A stretch of 64,000 nt of DNA. It comes from an uncultured Clostridia bacterium (lineage in GTDB: Bacteria > Bacillota > Clostridia > Christensenellales > Borkfalkiaceae). Each line of letters opens with the position of its first letter. The first letter of the stretch is position 1. A model generated the notes under the pieces. That model saw only the letters and a list, made by a program, of their open reading frames with translations. It ran no database searches and had not been told where the DNA came from. The stretch spans positions 20,026 to 84,025 of the forward strand of contig CALVHH010000007.1 in assembly GCA_944327465.1 (NCBI GenBank), read 5' to 3'. The position numbers and the translations under genes were made by a program. Shown piece by piece: positions 11,338 through 44,517 of the stretch.

Positions 11338-12399
11338 ATGGTAAAGATAGATATCTTTTCGGGATTTTTGGGCGCGGGCAAGACTACGCTCATAAAAAAG
11401 CTGATAAAGGAAGCCTATGCGGGCGAAAAGCTGGTGCTGATCGAAAACGAATTCGGCGAAATAGGCGTCGACGGCGGCTTTATGCAGGAAGCCGGCATAA
11501 CGGTAAACGAACTCAACTCAGGCTGCATATGCTGTTCGCTGGTGGGCGACTTTGCCAAGGCGTTGAAGCAGGTGGACGAGCAGTACAGCCCCGACAGGAT
11601 ACTAATTGAACCTTCGGGCGTGGGCAAACTTTCGGACGTGGCTAAGGCGGTTGAAAGAGCAAACCTTGCCGACGCAAAAATAAATTCCATGACTACCGTG
11701 GTGGATGCGAACAAGTGCAGGATGTACATGAAGAACTTTGGCGAGTTCTTCAACGACCAGATAGAGAGCGCCGCCTGCATAGTATTCAGCCATGCCGACG
11801 TGGCTAGCGAGGAAAAGCTTGCCAAAGCCGTGGAACTCGTGCGCGGGCACAACCCGAGCGCCACGATAGTCACCACAGATTTGAAGAGTCTGGACGGTAA
11901 GGAAATCCTTAATGCAATGGAGCACACCTCCACCCTTGCCGGCGAGCTTGCAAAGCTGGCGCGGGAAGTGCAGGACGAGCACGAACACTGCCACCACGAG
12001 CATGACCACGAGCATGAGCACGAGCATGAACACGAGCATGAGCACGAGCACCATCATCACGGGGACGGCGAGTGCTGCTGCCACGAGCATGAACATGAAC
12101 ATGAGCATCATCACCATCACGCCGACGAGGTATTCACGAGCTGGGGCAGGGAGACGAGCAAAAAGTTCACCGCCGAAGAGCTTGAAGAGATGCTTGCAAA
12201 GCTTTCGGACGCGGTATGCTACGGCACTGTACTGAGGGCAAAGGGCATTGTAGAGGGCGAAAACGGAAAGTGGCTGCACTTTGACTACGTGCCCGGCGAA
12301 ACGGACGTGCGCGAGGGCGCACCCGTATACACGGGCAGGCTGTGCGTAATAGGCAGCAAGCTCGACGAAGAGGAACTTGAAGAGCTGTTCGGAGTTTAA
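11338..12399 (+). CDS. G3E (CobW/COG0523) GTPase with His/Glu-rich metal-binding segment
   Basis: 353 aa putative metallochaperone GTPase. Walker A GFLGAGKTT is at residues 9-17, the COG0523 metal-site motif C63-I-C65-C66 in NSGCICCSL, Walker B-like ILIEPSGVG near residue 85-95, and an NKxD-like switch replaced by FSHADV. Residues ~217-265 are an alternating His/Glu tract (repeats of EHEH with HHHH and CCC) that should bind several Zn or similar ions. The CobW C-terminal domain follows. The next gene is a second GTPase 8 bp downstream, so the two probably act together. The metal is not shown by sequence; zinc is the usual guess for this family. Confidence 0.9.
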   Translation: MVKIDIFSGFLGAGKTTLIKKLIKEAYAGEKLVLIENEFGEIGVDGGFMQEAGITVNELNSGCICCSLVGDFAKALKQVDEQYSPDRILIEPSGVGKLSDVAKAVERANLADAKINSMTTVVDANKCRMYMKNFGEFFNDQIESAACIVFSHADVASEEKLAKAVELVRGHNPSATIVTTDLKSLDGKEILNAMEHTSTLAGELAKLAREVQDEHEHCHHEHDHEHEHEHEHEHEHEHHHHGDGECCCHEHEHEHEHHHHHADEVFTSWGRETSKKFTAEELEEMLAKLSDAVCYGTVLRAKGIVEGENGKWLHFDYVPGETDVREGAPVYTGRLCVIGSKLDEEELEELFGV

Positions 12400-12407
12400 A
12401 GAGCGCC

Positions 12408-13361
12408 ATGCAGGACGTTAACGTATTTTTATTCCTGGGTTTTTTGGAGAGCGGCAAGACGAAGTTTATACAGGAAACTTTGGAAGACCCGCGCATGGAG
12501 AACGGCGAGCGCACGCTGTTATTGGTGTGCGAGGAGGGCGAAGAGGAATACGAGCCCAAAAAGTTCGCCGTTAAAAATGTTGCAATAGAGCGGATCGAGG
12601 ACAGGGAGCACCTGAACGAGTACACCCTGAACTATCTTACCAAAAAGTACCGCGCCGAGCGCGTAGTTGTGGAATACAACGGAACGTGGATGTTGCAGGA
12701 CTTTTTTGACGCAATGCCGGAAAGCTGGGTGATAAACCAGATGATGACGTTTGCCGACGCGAACACGTTTTTGAGCCACAACCGGAACATGCGCCAGCTT
12801 GTATACGACAAGATATACATGACGCAGATGGTGGTGTTCAACCGGTTCAAGGGCGAAATGTCCAAAGAGCAGTTCCACAAGATAGTGCGCGGCATTACGC
12901 GGCGGGCGGACATCGTATACGAATATATAGGCGGAAAAGCCGAATTCGACGACACCGTAGACCCCATGCCCTACGACATGGACGCGCCGGTAATAGAGAT
13001 AGAGGACAGGGATTTTGCGCTGTTTTACCGCGACCTTTCGGAAAATCCTTCTGCCTACGCGGGCAAGACGGTGCGCTTCAAGGGCATGGCTGCGGTCTCC
13101 AAAAAAGTGCCGCAGGGCTTTATAGTAATAGGCAGGTACATAATGACCTGCTGCGAAGCCGACATAGCTTACGACGGCTTTGCGCTGAAGACAGACGGCA
13201 AAGCGACGGACGTAAAGACAAAGGACTGGCTGAACGTGACGGCAAAGATAAGCTTTGGCTACAACGCCGTATACCGCGGCGAGGGACCCATACTCGAAGC
13301 TATCGAAATAGAAAAGTGCGACCCTCTGCCCGCCGACGAAATCGTGGCTACATTTTATTGA
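12408..13361 (+). CDS. G3E-like GTPase fused to a CCxAD (TIGR03943-like) domain
   Basis: 317 aa. The N-terminus has a P-loop GFLESGKTKF (residues 11-20) and a G3E-like fold, but the C-x-C-C metal motif of the neighbour is missing. The C-terminal ~110 residues resemble the TIGR03943/YcgQ family: KVPQGFIVIGRYIMTCCEAD, with a cysteine pair followed by Glu-Ala-Asp, then a DWLNVTAKISFGY segment. TIGR03943 proteins usually stand beside YcgR-type permeases, which are absent here. The gene follows the first GTPase with 8 bp and shares its mRNA; a terminator follows. Family assignment of the C-terminal part is by pattern recognition only. Confidence 0.75.
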   Translation: MQDVNVFLFLGFLESGKTKFIQETLEDPRMENGERTLLLVCEEGEEEYEPKKFAVKNVAIERIEDREHLNEYTLNYLTKKYRAERVVVEYNGTWMLQDFFDAMPESWVINQMMTFADANTFLSHNRNMRQLVYDKIYMTQMVVFNRFKGEMSKEQFHKIVRGITRRADIVYEYIGGKAEFDDTVDPMPYDMDAPVIEIEDRDFALFYRDLSENPSAYAGKTVRFKGMAAVSKKVPQGFIVIGRYIMTCCEADIAYDGFALKTDGKATDVKTKDWLNVTAKISFGYNAVYRGEGPILEAIEIEKCDPLPADEIVATFY

Positions 13362-14316: not shown

Positions 14317-14991
14317 ATGAGCCAGGAACAAAACAACGAGAAAAGCAAAAAGAGACTGTTTACCTATTACCTCATACTGGGCGCGTGCCTGCTGCTTATA
14401 GCCGCAGTGACGCTGACGGTGATATTTGCCGTGCGCGGCAGCGACGACACTCTGCTGCCGGGCGGCGACGTTGCGGACGTGGGCGATGACGACGGCGACA
14501 CAGACGGCGATGACGGCAGCGATGACGACAGCGATGACGACGACGGGCAGCAGCCTTCGGACGACGTTTCGGCGGCGTATGAATTTATTGCGCCCGTGGC
14601 ACAGCTCGATATCATAAACGACTATACCTTTTATTATAATAAGACGCTGGACTGCTACCACTACCACACCGGTCTGGACATAGCCGGCGAGGCGGGCACG
14701 GAAGTTCTGGCGTGCGTGGACGGCACGATTGAGAGCATAACCAGGGACGACGTGCTGGACGGCGGCGAGATAGTTATAGCCCACGCCGACGGCGTAAAGA
14801 CGACCTACCGCTTTATAGACGTTGCCGAAGGGCTTGAAACGGGCGACGCCGTGGAGCGCGGCGACGTGATAGGCACGATAGCCCAACCCGCGGGCAGCGA
14901 GTACAAAGAGGGCGCCCACCTGCACTTCGAAGTTTCGAAAAACGGCGAACTTGCCGACCCCAACGACTATCTGGACATCGCCGAAAAGTAA
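14317..14991 (+). CDS. Membrane-anchored M23 family (LytM/SpoIIQ-like) protein
   Basis: 224 aa. One transmembrane segment at about residues 14-37 (YYLILGACLLLIAAVTLTVI), an Asp-rich spacer (residues ~50-77, repeats of DDGD), then a LytM/M23 domain with the zinc-ligand pattern H-x3-D (YHYHTGLDIAG) and the terminal HLHFEV. All ligands are present, so it could be an active endopeptidase. Architecture (single TM plus LytM, ~220 aa) matches SpoIIQ, which binds SpoIIIAH across the forespore membrane. Start chosen from AAAAGGAGATAAAATT before the ATG. It could equally be a vegetative cell wall M23 enzyme. Confidence 0.8.
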   Translation: MSQEQNNEKSKKRLFTYYLILGACLLLIAAVTLTVIFAVRGSDDTLLPGGDVADVGDDDGDTDGDDGSDDDSDDDDGQQPSDDVSAAYEFIAPVAQLDIINDYTFYYNKTLDCYHYHTGLDIAGEAGTEVLACVDGTIESITRDDVLDGGEIVIAHADGVKTTYRFIDVAEGLETGDAVERGDVIGTIAQPAGSEYKEGAHLHFEVSKNGELADPNDYLDIAEK

Positions 14992-15018
14992 TTTTGCACT
15001 TAACAATACCCGCTTAAT

Positions 15019-15065
15019 GCGGCAGCGGCGCACGCTTTTGCGTGCGCCGCTGCCGCTATTTTTTT
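15019..15065 (+). terminator. Intrinsic terminator after the M23 gene
   Basis: 17-bp stem GCGGCAGCGGCGCACGC / GCGTGCGCCGCTGCCGC with a TTTT loop and a run of seven T. Confidence 0.92.
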
Positions 15066-15350
15066 ACTTATTGTTACCTTTTTTCATGGCAAAACATGCC
15101 CTCTGTTTAAAACCCACCTGGTGCGGTTATATTAAATACGCCCGAAAGGTACGGCTTTTGAACGCAGATTTTAGCGTATTTTACAAAACGCCGACAACTT
15201 TTGTGAGATACGCCAAAATTTTGTTAGTTTTGAAATATTGTAACAAAAAGTTTACAAATAAAATGAAAATTCACAAAAATTATCCGTATTATCATAAAAT
15301 AGTGTTATAAAATAACATAAAAAACTTTTTTGAAATTTTCTTCAATGTGA

Positions 15351-15379
15351 TTGACTAACAAAAAATCCTATGCTATACT
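15351..15379 (+). promoter_or_regulatory. Strong promoter of the six-peptide unit
   Basis: TTGACT at 15351-15356, exactly 17 bp, TATACT at 15374-15379. The upstream 280 bp (15066-15350) is A+T-rich and gene-free. The predicted start is about 15386, the first base of a stem-loop. Confidence 0.88.
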
Positions 15380-15385
15380 GCATGC

Positions 15386-15412
15386 GAAATCGAGGTGAGG
15401 CACCGAGGTTTC
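15386..15412 (+). promoter_or_regulatory. 5'-terminal hairpin of the peptide mRNA
   Basis: GAAATC-GA-GGTG-AGG-CACC-GA-GGTTTC: two helical parts separated by a symmetric GA/GA internal loop (able to form tandem sheared G-A pairs) with a 3-nt loop. It begins at the predicted transcription start, a position where hairpins protect mRNAs from 5' decay. Confidence 0.6.
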
Positions 15413-15449
15413 AAATAAAAAAACAATTTTATACAGGGAGGCACGACAA

Positions 15450-15542
15450 ATGGATATGTATAAGAATTTGACGCAGACCTGCATAACCCACTGCATGAAC
15501 TACTGCGCCAGCATCAACGAAAGAACAAACGGCGTTATCTGA
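15450..15542 (+). CDS. Short peptide, family 1 copy 1 (30 aa)
   Basis: 30 aa, beginning MDMYKNLTQTCITHCMNY and ending TNGVI, preceded by GGGAGGCACGACAA. Cysteines at 11, 15 and 19 with His14 give the pattern C-x2-H-C-x3-C. It shares MxMYxNLTxTCxxHCxNY with the next two ORFs, each with its own ribosome binding site, while the spacers between them are unrelated: the sign of selected coding sequences. No signal peptide or double-glycine leader. I do not recognise the family. Confidence 0.7.
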   Translation: MDMYKNLTQTCITHCMNYCASINERTNGVI

Positions 15543-15624
15543 AATATACTTAAGCGATAACAAAAGAACAAGACTGAAAAATTATCCCTACACCAAGACC
15601 TTTAATTGCAAGGAGGTATTCAAA

Positions 15625-15717
15625 ATGGATATGTACGCAAACCTTACAAAGACCTGCGTTGAACACTGCATGAACTACACAAGGCAGTTCAACGGCAAGG
15701 CAGTCAACATCTTTTAA
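15625..15717 (+). CDS. Short peptide, family 1 copy 2 (30 aa)
   Basis: 30 aa, beginning MDMYANLTKTCVEHCMNY, with AAGGAGGTATTCAAA upstream. Cys11, His14 and Cys15 are kept but the third cysteine is Thr19, so the invariant core is TCxxHC. Ends QFNGKAVNIF; copy 3 also has QFNG at the same position. 82 bp after copy 1. Confidence 0.7.
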   Translation: MDMYANLTKTCVEHCMNYTRQFNGKAVNIF

Positions 15718-15799
15718 CACACCGCTTTAAATTTTAATTGATCACGACATCTACTCAACCCCCATCAAATAGCTTTTAAGTTACGAGGAGGACGACAAA

Positions 15800-15892
15800 A
15801 TGAATATGTATGCAAACCTTACGCAGACTTGCGTTGCTCATTGCAAAAACTACTGCGAGCAGTTCAACGGCCGTCGTTTTATTGAAGGCTGA
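15800..15892 (+). CDS. Short peptide, family 1 copy 3 (30 aa)
   Basis: 30 aa, beginning MNMYANLTQTCVAHCKNY, with CGAGGAGGACGACAAA upstream. Cys11, His14, Cys15 and Cys19 all present. All three family-1 peptides are exactly 30 residues long and the conserved part is the first 18, which would form one helix with the cysteines on one face (i, i+4, i+8). Confidence 0.7.
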   Translation: MNMYANLTQTCVAHCKNYCEQFNGRRFIEG

Positions 15893-15959
15893 ACAGCAGC
15901 AGTTAAAGGATCCGGCGCCCGCGAGGCGCATGCAACACTACCTTCAAGGAGGTAAAGAT

Positions 15960-16055
15960 ATGGACATTTATGAAAGATTGAACCAACTTGATGACGAAAA
16001 GACCGCTTACGGCGTAAACCCTCTTTCGTATGTCGTACTCGACTGCGCAAGATAA
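15960..16055 (+). CDS. Short peptide, family 2 copy 1 (31 aa)
   Basis: 31 aa, beginning MDIYERLNQLDDEK, with CAAGGAGGTAAAGAT upstream. The C-terminal block GVNPLSYVVLDCAR recurs in the next ORF as GVSPLSYVALGCAR. A single cysteine sits three residues from the end in both. No recognised family. Confidence 0.68.
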   Translation: MDIYERLNQLDDEKTAYGVNPLSYVVLDCAR

Positions 16056-16123
16056 TTTAAGCCGGTCGGCATTGACACAACAGTTTTTGGAAATATCGAA
16101 AAGAAACAAGGAGTTTTAAAATC

Positions 16124-16222
16124 ATGGTAGAAATTTACGAGGAAATTGCAAATCTTGACAACAATAGGAACGAAATAGGCGTTTCGCCCCTTTCGTACGT
16201 AGCGCTCGGCTGCGCAAGATAA
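16124..16222 (+). CDS. Short peptide, family 2 copy 2 (32 aa)
   Basis: 32 aa, beginning MVEIYEEIANLDNNRN and ending GVSPLSYVALGCAR, with ACAAGGAGTTTTAAAATC upstream. The I-Y-E plus L-D spacing and the terminal PLSYVxLxCAR match copy 1, so the pair is a paralogous family although the DNA has diverged at third positions. Confidence 0.68.
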   Translation: MVEIYEEIANLDNNRNEIGVSPLSYVALGCAR

Positions 16223-16272
16223 CTTGCCGCAGGCACGGTCGGATTATTTCAGACATTTAAGGAGATTTTATT

Positions 16273-16386
16273 ATGTTTGACATGTTTCAGGAGATAGTCC
16301 GCGCACAGAGGGACATTGAAAACGGAGCAAGACCCGGACTTGCATGCAGCACCCTTTTGTGGTACTACCTTTCAATGAACCGTTAA
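16273..16386 (+). CDS. Short peptide, last ORF of the unit (37 aa)
   Basis: 37 aa, beginning MFDMFQEIVRAQRDIENG and ending LLWYYLSMNR, with TTAAGGAGATTTTATT upstream. It has weak echoes of family 2 (aromatic at position 5-6, E-I, then G-x-x-P-x-L) and one cysteine at position 25, but a hydrophobic aromatic C-terminus. Followed after ~65 bp by the unit's terminator. Confidence 0.62.
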   Translation: MFDMFQEIVRAQRDIENGARPGLACSTLLWYYLSMNR

Positions 16387-16450
16387 GACCCGGGCGGCAT
16401 GAAAACACCCCCTCCAATTGCGGCTTCTGCCGCACTGTAAAACCAACTAT

Positions 16451-16493
16451 AAAGACGGCGGACTGCTTTTAAAAGCGGCCCGCCGTCTTTAAA
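16451..16493. terminator. Terminator between the peptide unit and the XRE gene
   Basis: AAAGACGGCGG...CCGCCGTCTTT with an inner GC stem; A-rich on one side and T-rich on the other, so it can serve both the plus-strand peptide unit and the convergent minus-strand XRE gene. Confidence 0.8.
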
Positions 16494-16517
16494 TTTATGC
16501 CCCGCGCAGACGGTGAA

Positions 16518-17192
16518 TCACTCCCTGCCGCCGACAGCGGCGGCTATACCGTGGACAGCGGCCGTTAGCACGGCTGCGATTATGAATATTATCCACGAAG
16601 GATGCCACAAGCTCCACACACAGCCGATGAACAGATATATGGTCACGGCGAGCGGCATAATCATGTTGCCCAGCCCGCCCAATATGCGGACGGCAAGCGG
16701 CTGCAGCGGAGCAGCCGCCTCCTCCTCATCGTCCTCCTTGGCGAACACCTTGTCGACGAATACGCACAAGGTAAAGGCGAGCAAAAACACCAGCCAGGCG
16801 GGATGCCACAGATTTAACACGGCGCCCAAGCATATGTAGACCGCAGCCGCACACAGCATGAGCCCTCCGCTGACGGCGCCGCCTATCGTGCGCAGCCTGA
16901 GCTTTTTCTGCCCGTCGGGGTCGGGCGACGACAGGTCGGCAGGGCATTCCTCCGCAGAATGCGGAGCATCTGGCAAAGGCTCCTCCTCGGCATTGATGTC
17001 GCCGCGCATGAGTTCATCCATTCCTACGCCAAAGAACCCGCACAGCTTTATTATCTTTTCGGTCTCGGGATAGGCTTCGCCCGTTTCCCACTTGGATACC
17101 GACTGCCTGGATACGCCCAGACGCTCGGCAAGTTCTTCCTGAGTAATCCTGTCGCGCCTTCTTAAACGCTGAAGATTGTCGGCAAATGACAT
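16518..17192 (-). CDS. XRE-family regulator with C-terminal membrane domain
   Basis: 224 aa. Helix-turn-helix at residues ~5-60 (ITQEELAERLGVSRQSVSKW), a short acidic linker, then about four hydrophobic segments including two copies of a similar pattern (LNLWHPAWLVFLLAFTLCVF and WSLWHPSWIIFIIAAVL). Start at the ATG 17192 with AAAGGAGAATATTTC upstream; an earlier in-frame start lies before the ribosome binding site. Such proteins may sense membrane or peptide stress. It is convergent to the peptide unit; no direct link is shown. Confidence 0.85.
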   Translation of the reverse strand: MSFADNLQRLRRRDRITQEELAERLGVSRQSVSKWETGEAYPETEKIIKLCGFFGVGMDELMRGDINAEEEPLPDAPHSAEECPADLSSPDPDGQKKLRLRTIGGAVSGGLMLCAAAVYICLGAVLNLWHPAWLVFLLAFTLCVFVDKVFAKEDDEEEAAAPLQPLAVRILGGLGNMIMPLAVTIYLFIGCVWSLWHPSWIIFIIAAVLTAAVHGIAAAVGGRE

Positions 17193-17225
17193 GAAATATT
17201 CTCCTTTATATTTATTTGCAACTCT

Positions 17226-17254
17226 ATTATACCCCATTAACAGCCCTCTTTCAA
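17226..17254 (-). promoter_or_regulatory. Promoter of the XRE gene
   Basis: Minus strand TTGAAA (17254-17249), 17-bp spacer, TATAAT (17231-17226). Confidence 0.85.
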
Positions 17255-17276
17255 CCGACTTTTAAGTGCTTTTTGC

Positions 17277-17291
17277 GCAACCTGAGGTTGC
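17277..17291. promoter_or_regulatory. Palindromic operator candidate upstream of the XRE gene
   Basis: GCAACCT-G-AGGTTGC, a perfect 7-1-7 inverted repeat ~22 bp upstream of the -35 element. Placement suits binding by the XRE protein itself; not proven. Confidence 0.5.
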
Positions 17292-17343
17292 AAATTGTAA
17301 TATTATTGTAAAAAGCGCACAAAAACGCAATGCGGTCGGCAAA

Positions 17344-17387
17344 GTGCGCCGCGCAGACCCCGACGTCTGCGCGGCGCACTTTTTTTT
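17344..17387 (+). terminator. Orphan intrinsic terminator upstream of degV
   Basis: 15-bp perfect stem GTGCGCCGCGCAGAC / GTCTGCGCGGCGCAC followed by eight T on the plus strand. The degV promoter lies downstream of it and no plus-strand gene ends just upstream, so it terminates either an unseen short transcript (17230-17344) or read-through. Confidence 0.85.
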
Positions 17388-17396
17388 AAAATTCAC

Positions 17397-17425
17397 TTGA
17401 TATTGCATTGGAAACATGCTATAAT
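17397..17425 (+). promoter_or_regulatory. Promoter of the first degV gene
   Basis: TTGATA (17397-17402), 17 bp, TATAAT (17420-17425). Confidence 0.87.
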
Positions 17426-17458
17426 ATATTTAAACAAATTGATAAGGGAATTTACGAA

Positions 17459-18304
17459 ATGAAAATAAAAATAACATCCGATTCGACTTGCGACCTCGGC
17501 GACAAGCTGATAGCCCAAAACGATATAGGCATATTTGCCCTGCAGGTAATATTGGGGGAAAAGACCTACCGCGACGGCGAAATAGCCCCGCAGGCGATAT
17601 TTGATTACGTTGCCTCGACGGGCATACTGCCCAAGACTTCGGCAGGCTCCACCGAAGAGTACACGCAGTTCTTTAAAGAGCAACTCGCCTCATGCGAGGA
17701 GCTCATACACTTCAACATCTCGTCCAAAGCTTCGAGCACGCACTCCGCCGCAAGCATTGCGGCAAAGCAGTTCAAGGGCAGGGTGAAGGTGATAGACAGC
17801 AAGGCGCTGTCCACGGGCCAGGGGCTGCTTGTATTGAAGGCGTGCGACTTCAGGGCGCAGGGCATGAGCTCGGACGAGATAGCAGAGCGCGTAACGGCGC
17901 TGACGCCCAAGGTAAACACATCGTTCGTGCCCGACGATTTGAACTATCTGCACAAGGGCGGAAGGTGCTCGCTTGCCGCCATGCTGGGCGCCAAGGTGCT
18001 TAAGCTGCATCCCCTGATAGAAGAGGACAGGGAAGGTCAGCTGATAGCAAAAAAGAAGTACATGGGCAGCATGGAGAGGTGCATAAAGACGTACGTTCAG
18101 GATTTACGCGCACAGTACCGCCGCTACGACAAGACGAGGTGCTTTGTGACCCACTCCTGCGCCGACCAGTCGATAATAGACATCGCCAAAAAGGAAGTTG
18201 CCGATATGTTCGAATTCGACGAGGTTATAGAGACCGTGGCGGGAGCCATTATAACCAGCCACTGCGGCAGAAACACGCTCGGCGTGCTGTTCATATCCGA
18301 ATAA
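17459..18304 (+). CDS. DegV family fatty-acid-binding protein (FakB-like)
   Basis: 281 aa. Starts MKIKITSDSTCDLGDKLIAQ with the DegV D-S-T-x-D motif; further DegV blocks are PKTSAGSTEEY, HFNISSKASSTHSAA and YLHKGGRCS. DegV/FakB proteins bind a fatty acid for phosphorylation by the FakA kinase in membrane lipid synthesis; no fakA is in the window. The ATG at 17459 has a weak ribosome binding site (AAGGGAATTTACGAA). A second DegV protein is encoded at 20648-21538 on the other strand. Confidence 0.92.
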   Translation: MKIKITSDSTCDLGDKLIAQNDIGIFALQVILGEKTYRDGEIAPQAIFDYVASTGILPKTSAGSTEEYTQFFKEQLASCEELIHFNISSKASSTHSAASIAAKQFKGRVKVIDSKALSTGQGLLVLKACDFRAQGMSSDEIAERVTALTPKVNTSFVPDDLNYLHKGGRCSLAAMLGAKVLKLHPLIEEDREGQLIAKKKYMGSMERCIKTYVQDLRAQYRRYDKTRCFVTHSCADQSIIDIAKKEVADMFEFDEVIETVAGAIITSHCGRNTLGVLFISE

Positions 18305-21724: not shown

Positions 21725-22342
21725 TCAGAGCATTGAAGCGAGGATCGCGAGGTTTGCGGCGACGTCGATATTGATCACCTTTACATCCTCCCCCGCCGTT
21801 ATCTGCACGGGCGCAAAGTTGAGTATAGCCCTTATACCCGCCCTGATGAGCCGCTCGGCAATGCCCTGCGCCGACGCGGCGGGCACGGCGATTATGGCGA
21901 GCTGCACGCCGTACTCCATGCAGCCGGCTTCGAGCGAGTCGACGGAGAGCACGGGCTTGCCGCCCACTATGCCGCCCACTTTGTGCGGGTCGTTATCGAA
22001 CGCGCACACGAGCTCTATGCCGTAGTTGGCAAAGCCGCCATAGCCGAGAAGCGCACTGCCCAGCCCGCCGGCGCCCACGAGCACGGCGCCCTTGTGGTCG
22101 TGTATGCACAAGAACTGTTCGAGCGCGGCGATGAGCTCGGCGCGGGGATAGCCAACTTTGGGTCTGCCCGCGCAGCCCGTATATGCCAAATCCTTTCTTA
22201 CCAGCACTTCGCCCAGACCGAGCGCCTGCGCTATCGCACCCGAGGACACGTAGGTATAAGCGTCGTCATCGGGCAGCGAGCGGAGATAGTTCAGATAGAC
22301 CGGCATCCTCTGCAGAGAAAATCCAGGTATGTCCCTGTTCAT
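21725..22342 (-). CDS. rex: Redox-sensing transcriptional repressor Rex
   Basis: 205 aa. N-terminal winged helix (AYTYVSSGAIAQALGLGEVL, VRKDLAYTG, GRPKVGYPRAELI) and a Rossmann NAD(H) domain with VLVGAGGLGSALLGY (GxGxxG at 90-95) and FDNDPHKVGGIVGG. Rex represses fermentation and respiration genes until NADH rises. It is 5 bp downstream of the ROK kinase gene, and the ribosome binding site GGGGGAATAA lies in that gene's end. Alcohol or butyrate genes it would control are not in the window. Confidence 0.96.
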   Translation of the reverse strand: MNRDIPGFSLQRMPVYLNYLRSLPDDDAYTYVSSGAIAQALGLGEVLVRKDLAYTGCAGRPKVGYPRAELIAALEQFLCIHDHKGAVLVGAGGLGSALLGYGGFANYGIELVCAFDNDPHKVGGIVGGKPVLSVDSLEAGCMEYGVQLAIIAVPAASAQGIAERLIRAGIRAILNFAPVQITAGEDVKVINIDVAANLAILASML

Positions 22343-28105: not shown

Positions 28106-28960
28106 ATGACGATATTCGGCAAATGCTGCTGCGGCTGCGACTGCGGCGGTACGGTTGAAAAGATAATCTACACCCCCACAGGAATAACCGGACCGACGGG
28201 TCCACAGGGAATCCAAGGCGCAACCGGTCCCACCGGTCCGCAGGGAATCCAGGGCATAACCGGCCCCACCGGCCCACAGGGAATTCAGGGCATAACCGGC
28301 CCCACCGGTCCGCAGGGGATCCGGGGCGCGACGGGCGCGGACGGAACTGCCGCCACCGTTGCCATAGGTACGGTGACTACCGCCCAGCCGGGCGCTCAGG
28401 CAGAGGTGACCAATTCGGGCACCCCCTCCGCCGTCGTTTTTGATTTTGTGATCCCCCAGGGGGCGACCGGTCCGCAGGGAATCCAGGGCATAACCGGCCC
28501 CACCGGTCCCCAGGGAATCCAAGGGGCAACCGGTCCGACGGGAAGCACGGACACACAGGCGGTCAGCGCGTATTCGCTGCCCGCTGCGCAGGTGAGCGAC
28601 GGCGGAGCCGTACAGTTTGACGTGACGGCGACGCAGTCGGGCACGGACGTGACGCACACCGCGGGCAGCGGCGACGTGACGATTACTCAGCCCGGCACAT
28701 ACTTTGTGCAGTACGGCGCCACGGTTGCGCCGACGGGCGCGGCGAGCTATCCCGTGACGGACATAGTTACGCTGTCGGTTAACGGTCAAACGCAGAGCGC
28801 GGGCGCGGGCATGGTGCAGTTTGACGCCGCGACGCCCGCAAGGCAGATCTCTGCCGCGGCGGTGCTGAACGTGACCGACGTCCCCGCCACCGTGCAGGTG
28901 ATATCAAGCGGCGGAAATTTTTTATATTCCAACGCGACGATAAACGTATTCAAAGTGTAA
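28106..28960 (+). CDS. Collagen-like (BclA-type) surface protein
   Basis: 284 aa. A Cys-rich start ([12 protein letters not shown], six cysteines in residues ~7-14) is followed by G-x-y collagen repeats of the GPTGPQGIQ type at residues ~27-80 and ~117-148, interrupted by a ~35-residue non-collagen segment, and a C-terminal beta-rich BclA/TNF-like domain ([13 protein letters not shown]...[16 protein letters not shown]). BclA proteins form hair-like trimers on spores. No signal peptide, as for exosporium proteins. TATAAT at 28071-28076 reads CATATAATG, which could suit a late sporulation sigma factor, but this is speculative. Confidence 0.88.
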
Positions 28961-44459: not shown

Positions 44460-44517
44460 TTTGTCCTCCTGATTTTTGGCAGTCAATAACATTTTTTAAT
44501 AATTTCTTTCATTTCTG

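What the first reader, a model, noticed from the sequence alone, without database searches (positions are those of the whole stretch)
15351..16493. Operon of six very short peptides in two to three unknown families
One strong promoter (TTGACT-N17-TATACT), a 5' hairpin, six ORFs of 30, 30, 30, 31, 32 and 37 codons each with its own strong ribosome binding site, then a terminator. The first three share MxMYxNLTxTCxxHCxNY with Cys/His at positions 11, 14, 15 (and often 19); the next two share GV-PLSYV-L-CAR. Protein similarity between copies with unrelated spacer DNA shows they are translated. No maturase, exporter or leader-peptide motif is next to them, so they do not look like a standard RiPP or bacteriocin cluster. 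Options are a metal- or heme-binding micro-protein set, signalling peptides, or membrane/stress regulators; an XRE regulator with a membrane domain lies convergent next to them.
Basis: partly seen in the sequence, partly recalled or inferred. Interest (0 to 1): 0.82.

Follow-up and report, generated by a model that had tools for sequence, protein, structure and literature searches.

The report
Regulated operon of six tiny proteins
Uncultured gut bacteria of one genus carry a stand-alone gene unit coding for one to six proteins of only about 30 amino acids behind a strikingly conserved double control site; the sequences evolve like real proteins, match no known family, and their job is still unknown.

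Summary
Six ORFs (30, 30, 30, 31, 32, 37 aa), each with its own ribosome binding site, lie between a strong promoter and a terminator-like hairpin. Family A (GV-PLSYV-L-CAR) is in 72 of 93 genomes of the genus (inferred: Candidatus Coproplasma), 1-5 copies, under purifying selection (pN/pS 0.13 for close pairs), with no credible match in the libraries searched. The control region is conserved even more than the peptides: a dyad TGTTA-N5-TAACA contains the -35 box, and a second dyad starts exactly 43 bp upstream, with an A/T-tract between. The pair occurs in 79 of 93 genus genomes and 2 of 305 other family genomes. 83 of 84 such elements precede tiny ORFs, of several unrelated-looking families. 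Most transcripts would begin with a hairpin. TCxxHC is not conserved, and the neighbouring XRE gene is absent from many genomes that have the element, so the metal/heme and XRE ideas fail. Best reading: an apparently single-target regulon for leaderless, often acidic, helix-loop-helix micro-proteins that probably act in the cytoplasm in bulk. Regulator and biochemical function are unknown.

The parts
15291..15302 (+). conserved upstream block (consensus ATCATAAAATAG); possible divergent -10 (inference)
   Evidence: CATA at 87-91% over 87 aligned rows
15303..15317 (+). operator O2, TGTTATAAAATAACA, perfect TGTTA-N5-TAACA dyad
   Evidence: starts exactly 43 bp upstream of O1; 9-10 of 10 arm bases in 77 of 84 elements vs 3 of 5655 at other offsets
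15318..15345 (+). A/T-tract spacer resembling a full UP element
   Evidence: phased AAAATTTTT..AAA pattern; the UP-element comparison is from memory
15346..15360 (+). operator O1, TGTGATTGACTAACA, overlapping the -35 box
   Evidence: ATGTTATTGACTAACA with <=1 mismatch in 77 of 93 genus genomes
15351..15379 (+). promoter TTGACT-N17-TATACT with extended -10 (TGC)
15386..15412 (+). stem-loop at the predicted 5' end of the transcript
15450..15542 (+). ORF 1, family B, 30 aa MDMYKNLTQTCITHCMNYCASINERTNGVI
15625..15717 (+). ORF 2, family B, 30 aa
15800..15892 (+). ORF 3, family B, 30 aa
15960..16055 (+). ORF 4, family A, 31 aa MDIYERLNQLDDEKTAYGVNPLSYVVLDCAR
16124..16222 (+). ORF 5, family A, 32 aa
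16273..16386 (+). ORF 6, 37 aa MFDMFQEIVRAQRDIENGARPGLACSTLLWYYLSMNR
   Evidence: relative in L201/L206, 43% identical
16450..16491 (.). terminator-like hairpin between convergent genes

Best explanation
It is a self-contained, regulated, high-output micro-protein operon. SHOWN by sequence: two dyads (O2, O1) whose starts are 43 bp apart, the nearer one over the -35 box; a near-consensus promoter; a 5' stem-loop kept in most loci; one to six separately initiated ORFs of about 31 aa, with family A under purifying selection; no membrane segment. INFERRED: a dimeric DNA-binding protein, not encoded beside the operon, binds O1 and O2 (about four helical turns apart, same face) and blocks RNA polymerase; when it is released, the strong promoter, AT-rich upstream element and 5' hairpin give an abundant, stable message; tandem copies raise the dose. 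The products are leaderless helix-loop-helix micro-proteins (amphipathic N-terminal helix, in family A acidic, with a short hydrophobic C-terminal helix ending in CAR) that stay in the cytoplasm and act stoichiometrically by binding a protein partner. The partner and the inducing signal are not known.
For: Family A in 72 of 93 genus genomes, 1-5 copies. pN 0.062, pS 0.473 for 36 close pairs; ORF 4 against its L204 relative pN 0.054, pS 0.724. Double dyad in 79 of 93 genus and 2 of 305 other family genomes, reversed control in 4 of 398; O1 in 77 of 93, reversed control in 3. Best upstream dyad at -43 in 82 of 87 rows. 83 of 84 elements followed by 1-6 tiny ORFs, random control 155 of 3000. Leader MFE -9.3 vs -5.1 shuffled, 79 of 84 lower; stem columns switch A-U/G-C. 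Similar promoters elsewhere precede 16S rRNA and, named by eye, gap, rpsU, ilvC and nrdD. Helices predicted at 2-12 and 21-26 of ORF 4 (pLDDT 78.7) and 2-16, 21-36 of ORF 6 (pLDDT 67.1). N-helix moment 0.45 vs 0.27 shuffled in 101 A peptides, 0.41 vs 0.29 in 54 non-A. A peptides mean charge -3.6. At least five different genomic neighbourhoods.
Against: No data on expression, repression or location. pTM is only 0.33 and 0.30. Non-A families B, G and H do not share the tail motif; 37% of 54 non-A peptides score p<0.1 on it, so one mode of action for all is not shown. Non-A mean charge is about 0. Selection was measured for A, and for B only between three window copies with near-saturated pS. At stem columns 4-7 of the leader 16-24 of 84 sequences are unpaired, and some leaders have no such hairpin. 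The element is absent from nearly complete genomes such as G048, G059 and G090, so it is dispensable. Single dyads were not searched genome-wide, so other targets are possible. Regulator unidentified; an activator at O2 would fit almost as well as a repressor.
Confidence: 0.45

Rival explanations
1. Leaderless secreted peptides (multi-peptide bacteriocin or phenol-soluble-modulin-like): tandem ORFs of about 30 aa without leader, exported by a transporter coded elsewhere, acting on other bacteria or surfaces.
For: Layout resembles aureocin A70 (four peptides of 30-31 aa; PMC6131525, passages only). Copy number and families vary between species.
Against: Leaderless bacteriocins in the table rows seen are +4 to +8; family A averages -3.6 and the rest about 0. 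No transporter or immunity gene is constant beside the loci. Strong purifying selection on family A.
Confidence: 0.18
2. Pro-peptides of an intracellular-receptor signalling system (RRNPP-like): the conserved C-terminal PLSYVxLxCAR is the mature pheromone and its receptor binds O1/O2.
For: The C-terminal half holds most of the conserved columns of family A; operators over the peptide promoter would suit feedback.
Against: No receptor gene constant beside the loci; families with unrelated tails share the same operators.
Confidence: 0.12
3. Toxic or addiction-type tiny peptides kept silent by a repressor.
For: Operator over the promoter, tandem copies, loss in some genomes.
Against: Not hydrophobic (0 of 155 above KD 1.6); nine Rfam matches in 14900-17500, all below gathering score.
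Confidence: 0.1
4. Metal- or heme-binding micro-proteins.
For: TCxxHC in three window ORFs; exactly one Cys in 86 of 101 A peptides.
Against: TCxxHC not kept in the only operon relative; 32 of 54 non-A peptides have no Cys. The Tim10 zinc-finger hit of ORF 2 is 17.5 bits against a cut-off of 22.3.
Confidence: 0.04
5. The RNA is the product and the ORFs are incidental.
For: 5' hairpin kept in most loci.
Against: pN/pS 0.13 for family A; own SD for each ORF.
Confidence: 0.02

Closest known systems
Aureocin A70-type multi-peptide leaderless bacteriocin operons
   Same: Tandem ORFs of about 30 aa, no leader peptide
   Different: Aureocin A70 peptides are +4 to +5 and have known secretion and immunity genes (PMC6131525, passages only); here acidic or neutral and with no constant neighbour
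Staphylococcal phenol-soluble modulin operons (recalled; passages of one review seen)
   Same: Several short leaderless amphipathic peptides from one strongly regulated operon (recalled)
   Different: No sequence relation tested or claimed; no exporter constant beside the loci
Genus-specific small-protein families of the global smORF catalogue (PMC11364881, one passage)
   Same: Restricted to one genus, no annotation; that passage reports more than half of its families as genus-specific
   Different: Here several families share one conserved double-operator promoter and tandem organisation
Rex and Fur-family operators (consensus recalled)
   Same: Dyads of similar half-sites (Rex TTGTTAA-N4-TTAACAA; Fur 7-1-7)
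   Different: Spacing is N5, one base short of Rex; no Rex box with <=1 mismatch in the loci scanned; inner bases of O2 do not continue the symmetry

Membership tests
Leaderless bacteriocin | cationic peptide (+4 to +8 in the rows seen) | tested here: not met
   family A mean -3.6, non-A -0.1; window ORFs 0, +1, +1, -3, -3, 0
Leaderless bacteriocin | transporter and immunity genes in the cluster | tested here: not met
   flanking ORFs of 90 aa or more are M23 peptidase, MocR-type, XRE, DegV, adenine deaminase, alcohol dehydrogenase and others, differing by site (names by eye except M23, XRE and DegV)
RiPP | maturation enzyme beside the precursor | tested here: inconclusive
   none recognised by eye among 25 flanking families within about 3.5 kb; only the window's three neighbours and five nearby window genes were scanned with Pfam
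RRNPP signalling | cognate receptor gene adjacent | tested here: not met
   no constant regulator gene; XRE family F9 in 11 loci, LacI-like F17 in 5, MocR-type F2 in 37
RRNPP signalling | C-terminal fragment re-imported and bound | not testable with these tools
   needs peptides
CxxHC-type metal protein | conserved Cys/His ligands across relatives | tested here: not met
   TCxxHC only in the window genome
Type I toxin | hydrophobic membrane-spanning peptide | tested here: not met
   0 of 155 peptides above KD 1.6 over 17 residues
Any family in Pfam, NCBIfam, PHROGs, PDB | profile match above cut-off | tested here: not met
   76 A members: best Pfam E 0.031, NCBIfam 0.043, PHROG 0.025; best PDB E 0.087. 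ORFs 1-3 and 6 were scanned against Pfam only, nothing above cut-off
XRE-regulated operon (window 16521-17192) | regulator present wherever the operator is | tested here: not met
   47 of 93 genomes at E<=1e-15; none in G004, G006, G013, G017, G107, which have the operators

The most novel reading that the evidence does not exclude
Coproplasma has a dedicated regulon, controlled by an unidentified DNA-binding protein through two dyads 43 bp apart, whose only targets are stand-alone operons of tiny leaderless proteins. The control element is conserved while the peptide repertoire turns over between and within species, which would be a new peptide-based effector system of gut Clostridia.
Probability: 0.5. 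Interest if true: 0.75.

Novelty: new variant of a known kind. Interest (0 to 1): 0.62.

Why it matters
Genes this short are normally left out of annotation. Here 77 of 93 genomes keep a highly conserved control site in front of them, so the cell invests in them. The pair of operators gives a handle for finding the regulator and, through it, the signal; family A gives a defined 31-residue target for mass spectrometry and partner fishing. If the products are secreted or signal, they would be a new class of gut bacterial peptide; if cytoplasmic, a new class of stoichiometric micro-protein regulator.

Tried and rejected
Rejected readings. Metal/heme site: TCxxHC not conserved; the best outside hit, in G046, lies antisense to another gene and has no element nearby. 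Adjacent XRE as regulator. Rex as regulator (a Rex-like gene lies at 21725-22342): spacing one base off (recalled consensus), no Rex box with <=1 mismatch in the loci scanned. Fur box: outer resemblance only (recalled consensus). Phage or plasmid origin: no confirmed relative of the family A alignment in viral contigs (5 stretches matched a pattern, none confirmed), no exact promoter pattern there, no match of ORF 4 in plasmids; the other ORFs were not searched there. Known RNA family: nothing at gathering score in 14900-17500, nine chance-level matches. A homolog in another genus: family A in 4 of 151 order genomes, three of them the genus (own included) and the fourth (E 0.003) with a stop inside; in 251 family genomes the only hits outside the genus are five at E 0.04-0.09, four of them in frames of 275 aa or more. 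A single superfamily for all peptides: only partly; the automatic A/non-A split also puts a few A-like and A'-type peptides among non-A. Paper searches (0 papers; two plant papers) gave nothing; listings 67 and 71 were not read further except PMC11364881 and PMC10941976 (passages).

Results against the reading and rows dropped. From 87 aligned elements three were dropped as chance matches (window minus strand 44477-44491, L128, L350); counts of 84 are after that; 82 of 87 is before. Two rows (a family B peptide and a spurious ORF) were left out of family A. One peptide with unresolved bases and one duplicate were left out. One of 84 elements (L193) gave no ORF under the script's rules; a GTG ORF of 34 aa is there. 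Four elements have a poor O2 at exactly -43. G049's double-dyad match looks like chance (GC-rich spacer, 2 mismatches). Of O1 hits, L350 has no tiny ORF after it and L354 ends at the contig edge. One search found 14 exact dyads outside the registered O1/O2 places in 639 kb of fetched stretches; by inspection 11 are O1 or O2 of duplicate or edge-cut loci, two (L186, L190) a third dyad and one (L188) unrelated. Pair counts come from folding each leader, so they lean towards pairs; the MFE comparison used plain shuffles. The 86 loci include two that are not peptide loci (L196, L197).

Full report
Observation. TTGACT-N17-TATACT stands at 15351-15379; six ORFs of 30, 30, 30, 31, 32 and 37 aa follow, each with its own Shine-Dalgarno sequence; a hairpin of -28.9 kcal/mol at 16450-16491 closes the unit before a convergent XRE gene. 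ORFs 1-3 are three copies of one family (B), ORFs 4-5 two copies of another (A), ORF 6 a third type.

Organism and spread. The window genome is an unnamed 1.4-Mb assembly. A scan of genome contigs (one genome for each of 84,980 species) with the family A alignment, through one degenerate pattern of its tail, gave 42 loci, all labelled Clostridia or Clostridiales assemblies or Candidatus Coproplasma (four species); contig lengths of those four equal contigs of genus-mates in the handle-based searches, so the genus is inferred to be Coproplasma. Family A was found in 72 of 93 genus genomes (48 of 61 good ones), mostly one or two copies, up to five. Outside the genus it was not credibly found: 4 of 151 order genomes, of which three are the genus (own included) and one a weak hit with a stop; 36 of 251 family genomes, of which 31 are the genus (own included) and five are E 0.04-0.09 hits. 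No confirmed relative in viral contigs; ORF 4 has no match in plasmids; nothing above cut-off or at a meaningful score in Pfam, NCBIfam, PHROGs or PDB for family A, and in Pfam for ORFs 1-6.

The ORFs evolve as genes. Among 76 family A sequences, the 36 pairs at 85% or more amino-acid identity have pN 0.062 and pS 0.473; ORF 4 against its L204 relative has pN 0.054 and pS 0.724, ORF 5 against L206 pN 0.080 and pS 0.750 (pairs are not independent). The three B copies differ with pN 0.26-0.34 and near-saturated pS 0.67-0.76. So family A is clearly read as protein and family B probably so; ORF 6 was not tested this way.

A double operator. Aligning the promoters showed conservation beyond -35 and -10: upstream TGTTA and downstream TAACA make a 15-bp dyad, O1, around TTGAC. 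Exactly 43 bp upstream starts a second dyad, O2: the best upstream dyad falls at -43 in 82 of 87 rows, and 9-10 of 10 arm bases match at that offset in 77 rows, against 3 of 5655 other positions (after dropping three chance rows, 77 of 84). Between them is a phased A/T tract that resembles a full UP element (recalled). In the window O2 is TGTTATAAAATAACA (15303-15317) and O1 TGTGATTGACTAACA (15346-15360). The 58-bp double-dyad pattern with up to two mismatches is in 79 of 93 genus genomes and in 2 of 305 other genomes of the family, with four of 398 genomes matching the reversed control. The single O1 16-mer with up to one mismatch is in 77 of 93, reversed control in 3. In 639 kb of fetched stretches, 14 exact dyads lay outside the registered O1/O2 places; by inspection 11 of them are O1 or O2 of duplicate or edge-cut loci, two a third dyad in L186/L190 and one unrelated in L188. 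Single dyads were not searched over whole genomes, so further targets cannot be excluded.

What the element drives. 83 of 84 elements are followed by a chain of tiny SD-preceded ORFs: 35 with one, 29 with two, 15 with three, 2 with four, 1 with five and 1 (the window) with six; 157 peptides, median 31 aa, 18-48. The same search for a first ORF from random points succeeds in 155 of 3000. Besides family A there are others: C (..LDLKTTARFYLALSNI), A' (MATLPLVYLALTNARN), D (FFSGAFINAFLRTM), E (acidic start, hydrophobic end), H (MRFIHWLRYIGSLLTPAK) and window type B. Some resemble the family A tail more than their own shuffles do (37% of 54 at p<0.1), others do not. Some genomes have a second element elsewhere with another family.

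Genomic setting. Of 86 loci classified by upstream neighbour, 41 lie beside an M23 peptidase gene (the window among them), 12 beside an adenine deaminase, 8 beside an iron alcohol dehydrogenase, 5 beside a LacI-type gene, 2 beside an AAA-type gene, and 18 are edge-cut, single or not peptide loci (names by eye except M23, XRE and DegV). No gene family is beside all of them, so the unit appears to work alone. The XRE gene beside the window copy is found at E<=1e-15 in 47 of 93 genomes and is missing at that level from many with the operators.

Transcript. Other promoters found by similarity in these genomes stand before 16S rRNA and, by eye, gap, rpsU, ilvC and nrdD, which suggests high output; the 17 listed lack the O1 dyad. 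In most loci the predicted transcript begins at once with a stem-loop: mean MFE -9.3 against -5.1 for shuffles, lower in 79 of 84, and stem columns switch between A-U and G-C (column 5: 28 and 30; column 6: 13 and 43), while 16-24 of 84 are unpaired at columns 4-7; leaders such as L127, L141 and L161 do not show it. A 5' stabiliser is the simplest reading (inference).

Peptide properties. No peptide of 155 reaches KD 1.6 over 17 residues; residues 2-12 form an amphipathic helix pattern in A (0.45 vs 0.27 shuffled) and non-A (0.41 vs 0.29). AlphaFold2 gives helices 2-12 and 21-26 for ORF 4 (pLDDT 78.7, pTM 0.33) and 2-16 and 21-36 for ORF 6 (pLDDT 67.1, pTM 0.30). Family A has a mean charge of -3.6 and mostly one Cys (86 of 101).

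Mechanism. The best-supported account is a dedicated regulator acting at O1/O2 on a high-output operon of leaderless micro-proteins that act in bulk, most likely inside the cell. Shown: sites, promoter, hairpin, ORFs, selection on family A, lack of membrane segments and of constant partner genes. Inferred: repression rather than activation, abundance, cytoplasmic place, protein partner. Secreted leaderless peptides are the main rival; the aureocin A70 operon has a similar layout but cationic peptides and its own secretion and immunity genes (PMC6131525, passages only).

Comparison and novelty. Genus-specific small-protein families as such are common (PMC11364881, one passage). What is unusual is that several families, without a constant neighbour, sit behind the same double-operator promoter across a genus. 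No paper on Coproplasma small proteins was found: searches 'Coproplasma' + 'small protein' (0 papers), 'Coproplasma' (6 papers, listing only), 'Borkfalkiaceae' (26 papers, 15 listed; passages of PMC11536998 on sporulation seen), 'TGTTA/TAACA/repressor/operator/palindrome' (8 papers, listing only). The library holds open-licence papers only.

Verdict. A real, conserved and evidently regulated micro-protein unit with unknown function; a new variant of orphan small-protein operons rather than a member of any tested family.

Noticed in passing
window 21725-22342 (-): Rex-like redox regulator (CoA_binding plus Put_DNA-bind_N) about 5 kb from the operon; its usual box (recalled) does not match O1/O2 spacing.
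   Followed up: partly
window 44477-44491 (-): 13 of 15 match to O1 (TGTTATTGACTGCCA) just before the likely start of a malic enzyme gene (named by eye), without O2; taken as chance.
   Followed up: no
window 11338-13361 (+): Two adjacent CobW-type genes, the first with a long His-rich stretch, the second with a DUF1980 C-terminal domain; possible metal chaperones.
   Followed up: no
window 28106-28960 (+): Collagen-like protein with [10 protein letters not shown] repeats (Pfam Collagen).
   Followed up: no
L186 and L190: A third dyad TGTTAATTATTAACA, 116 bp from O1 in L186 and present in L190 too, in the two loci with the peptide MDMFSFLNNGVLFCMMNAKKNMEIEENEYMD.
   Followed up: no
genomes G498 and G501 (another genus of the family): One double-dyad place each with <=2 mismatches; what lies downstream was not read.
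   Followed up: no
window 15291-15302: Conserved ATCATAAAATAG upstream of O2; on the other strand it could be the -10 of a divergent promoter whose -35 overlaps O2 (by eye).
   Followed up: no
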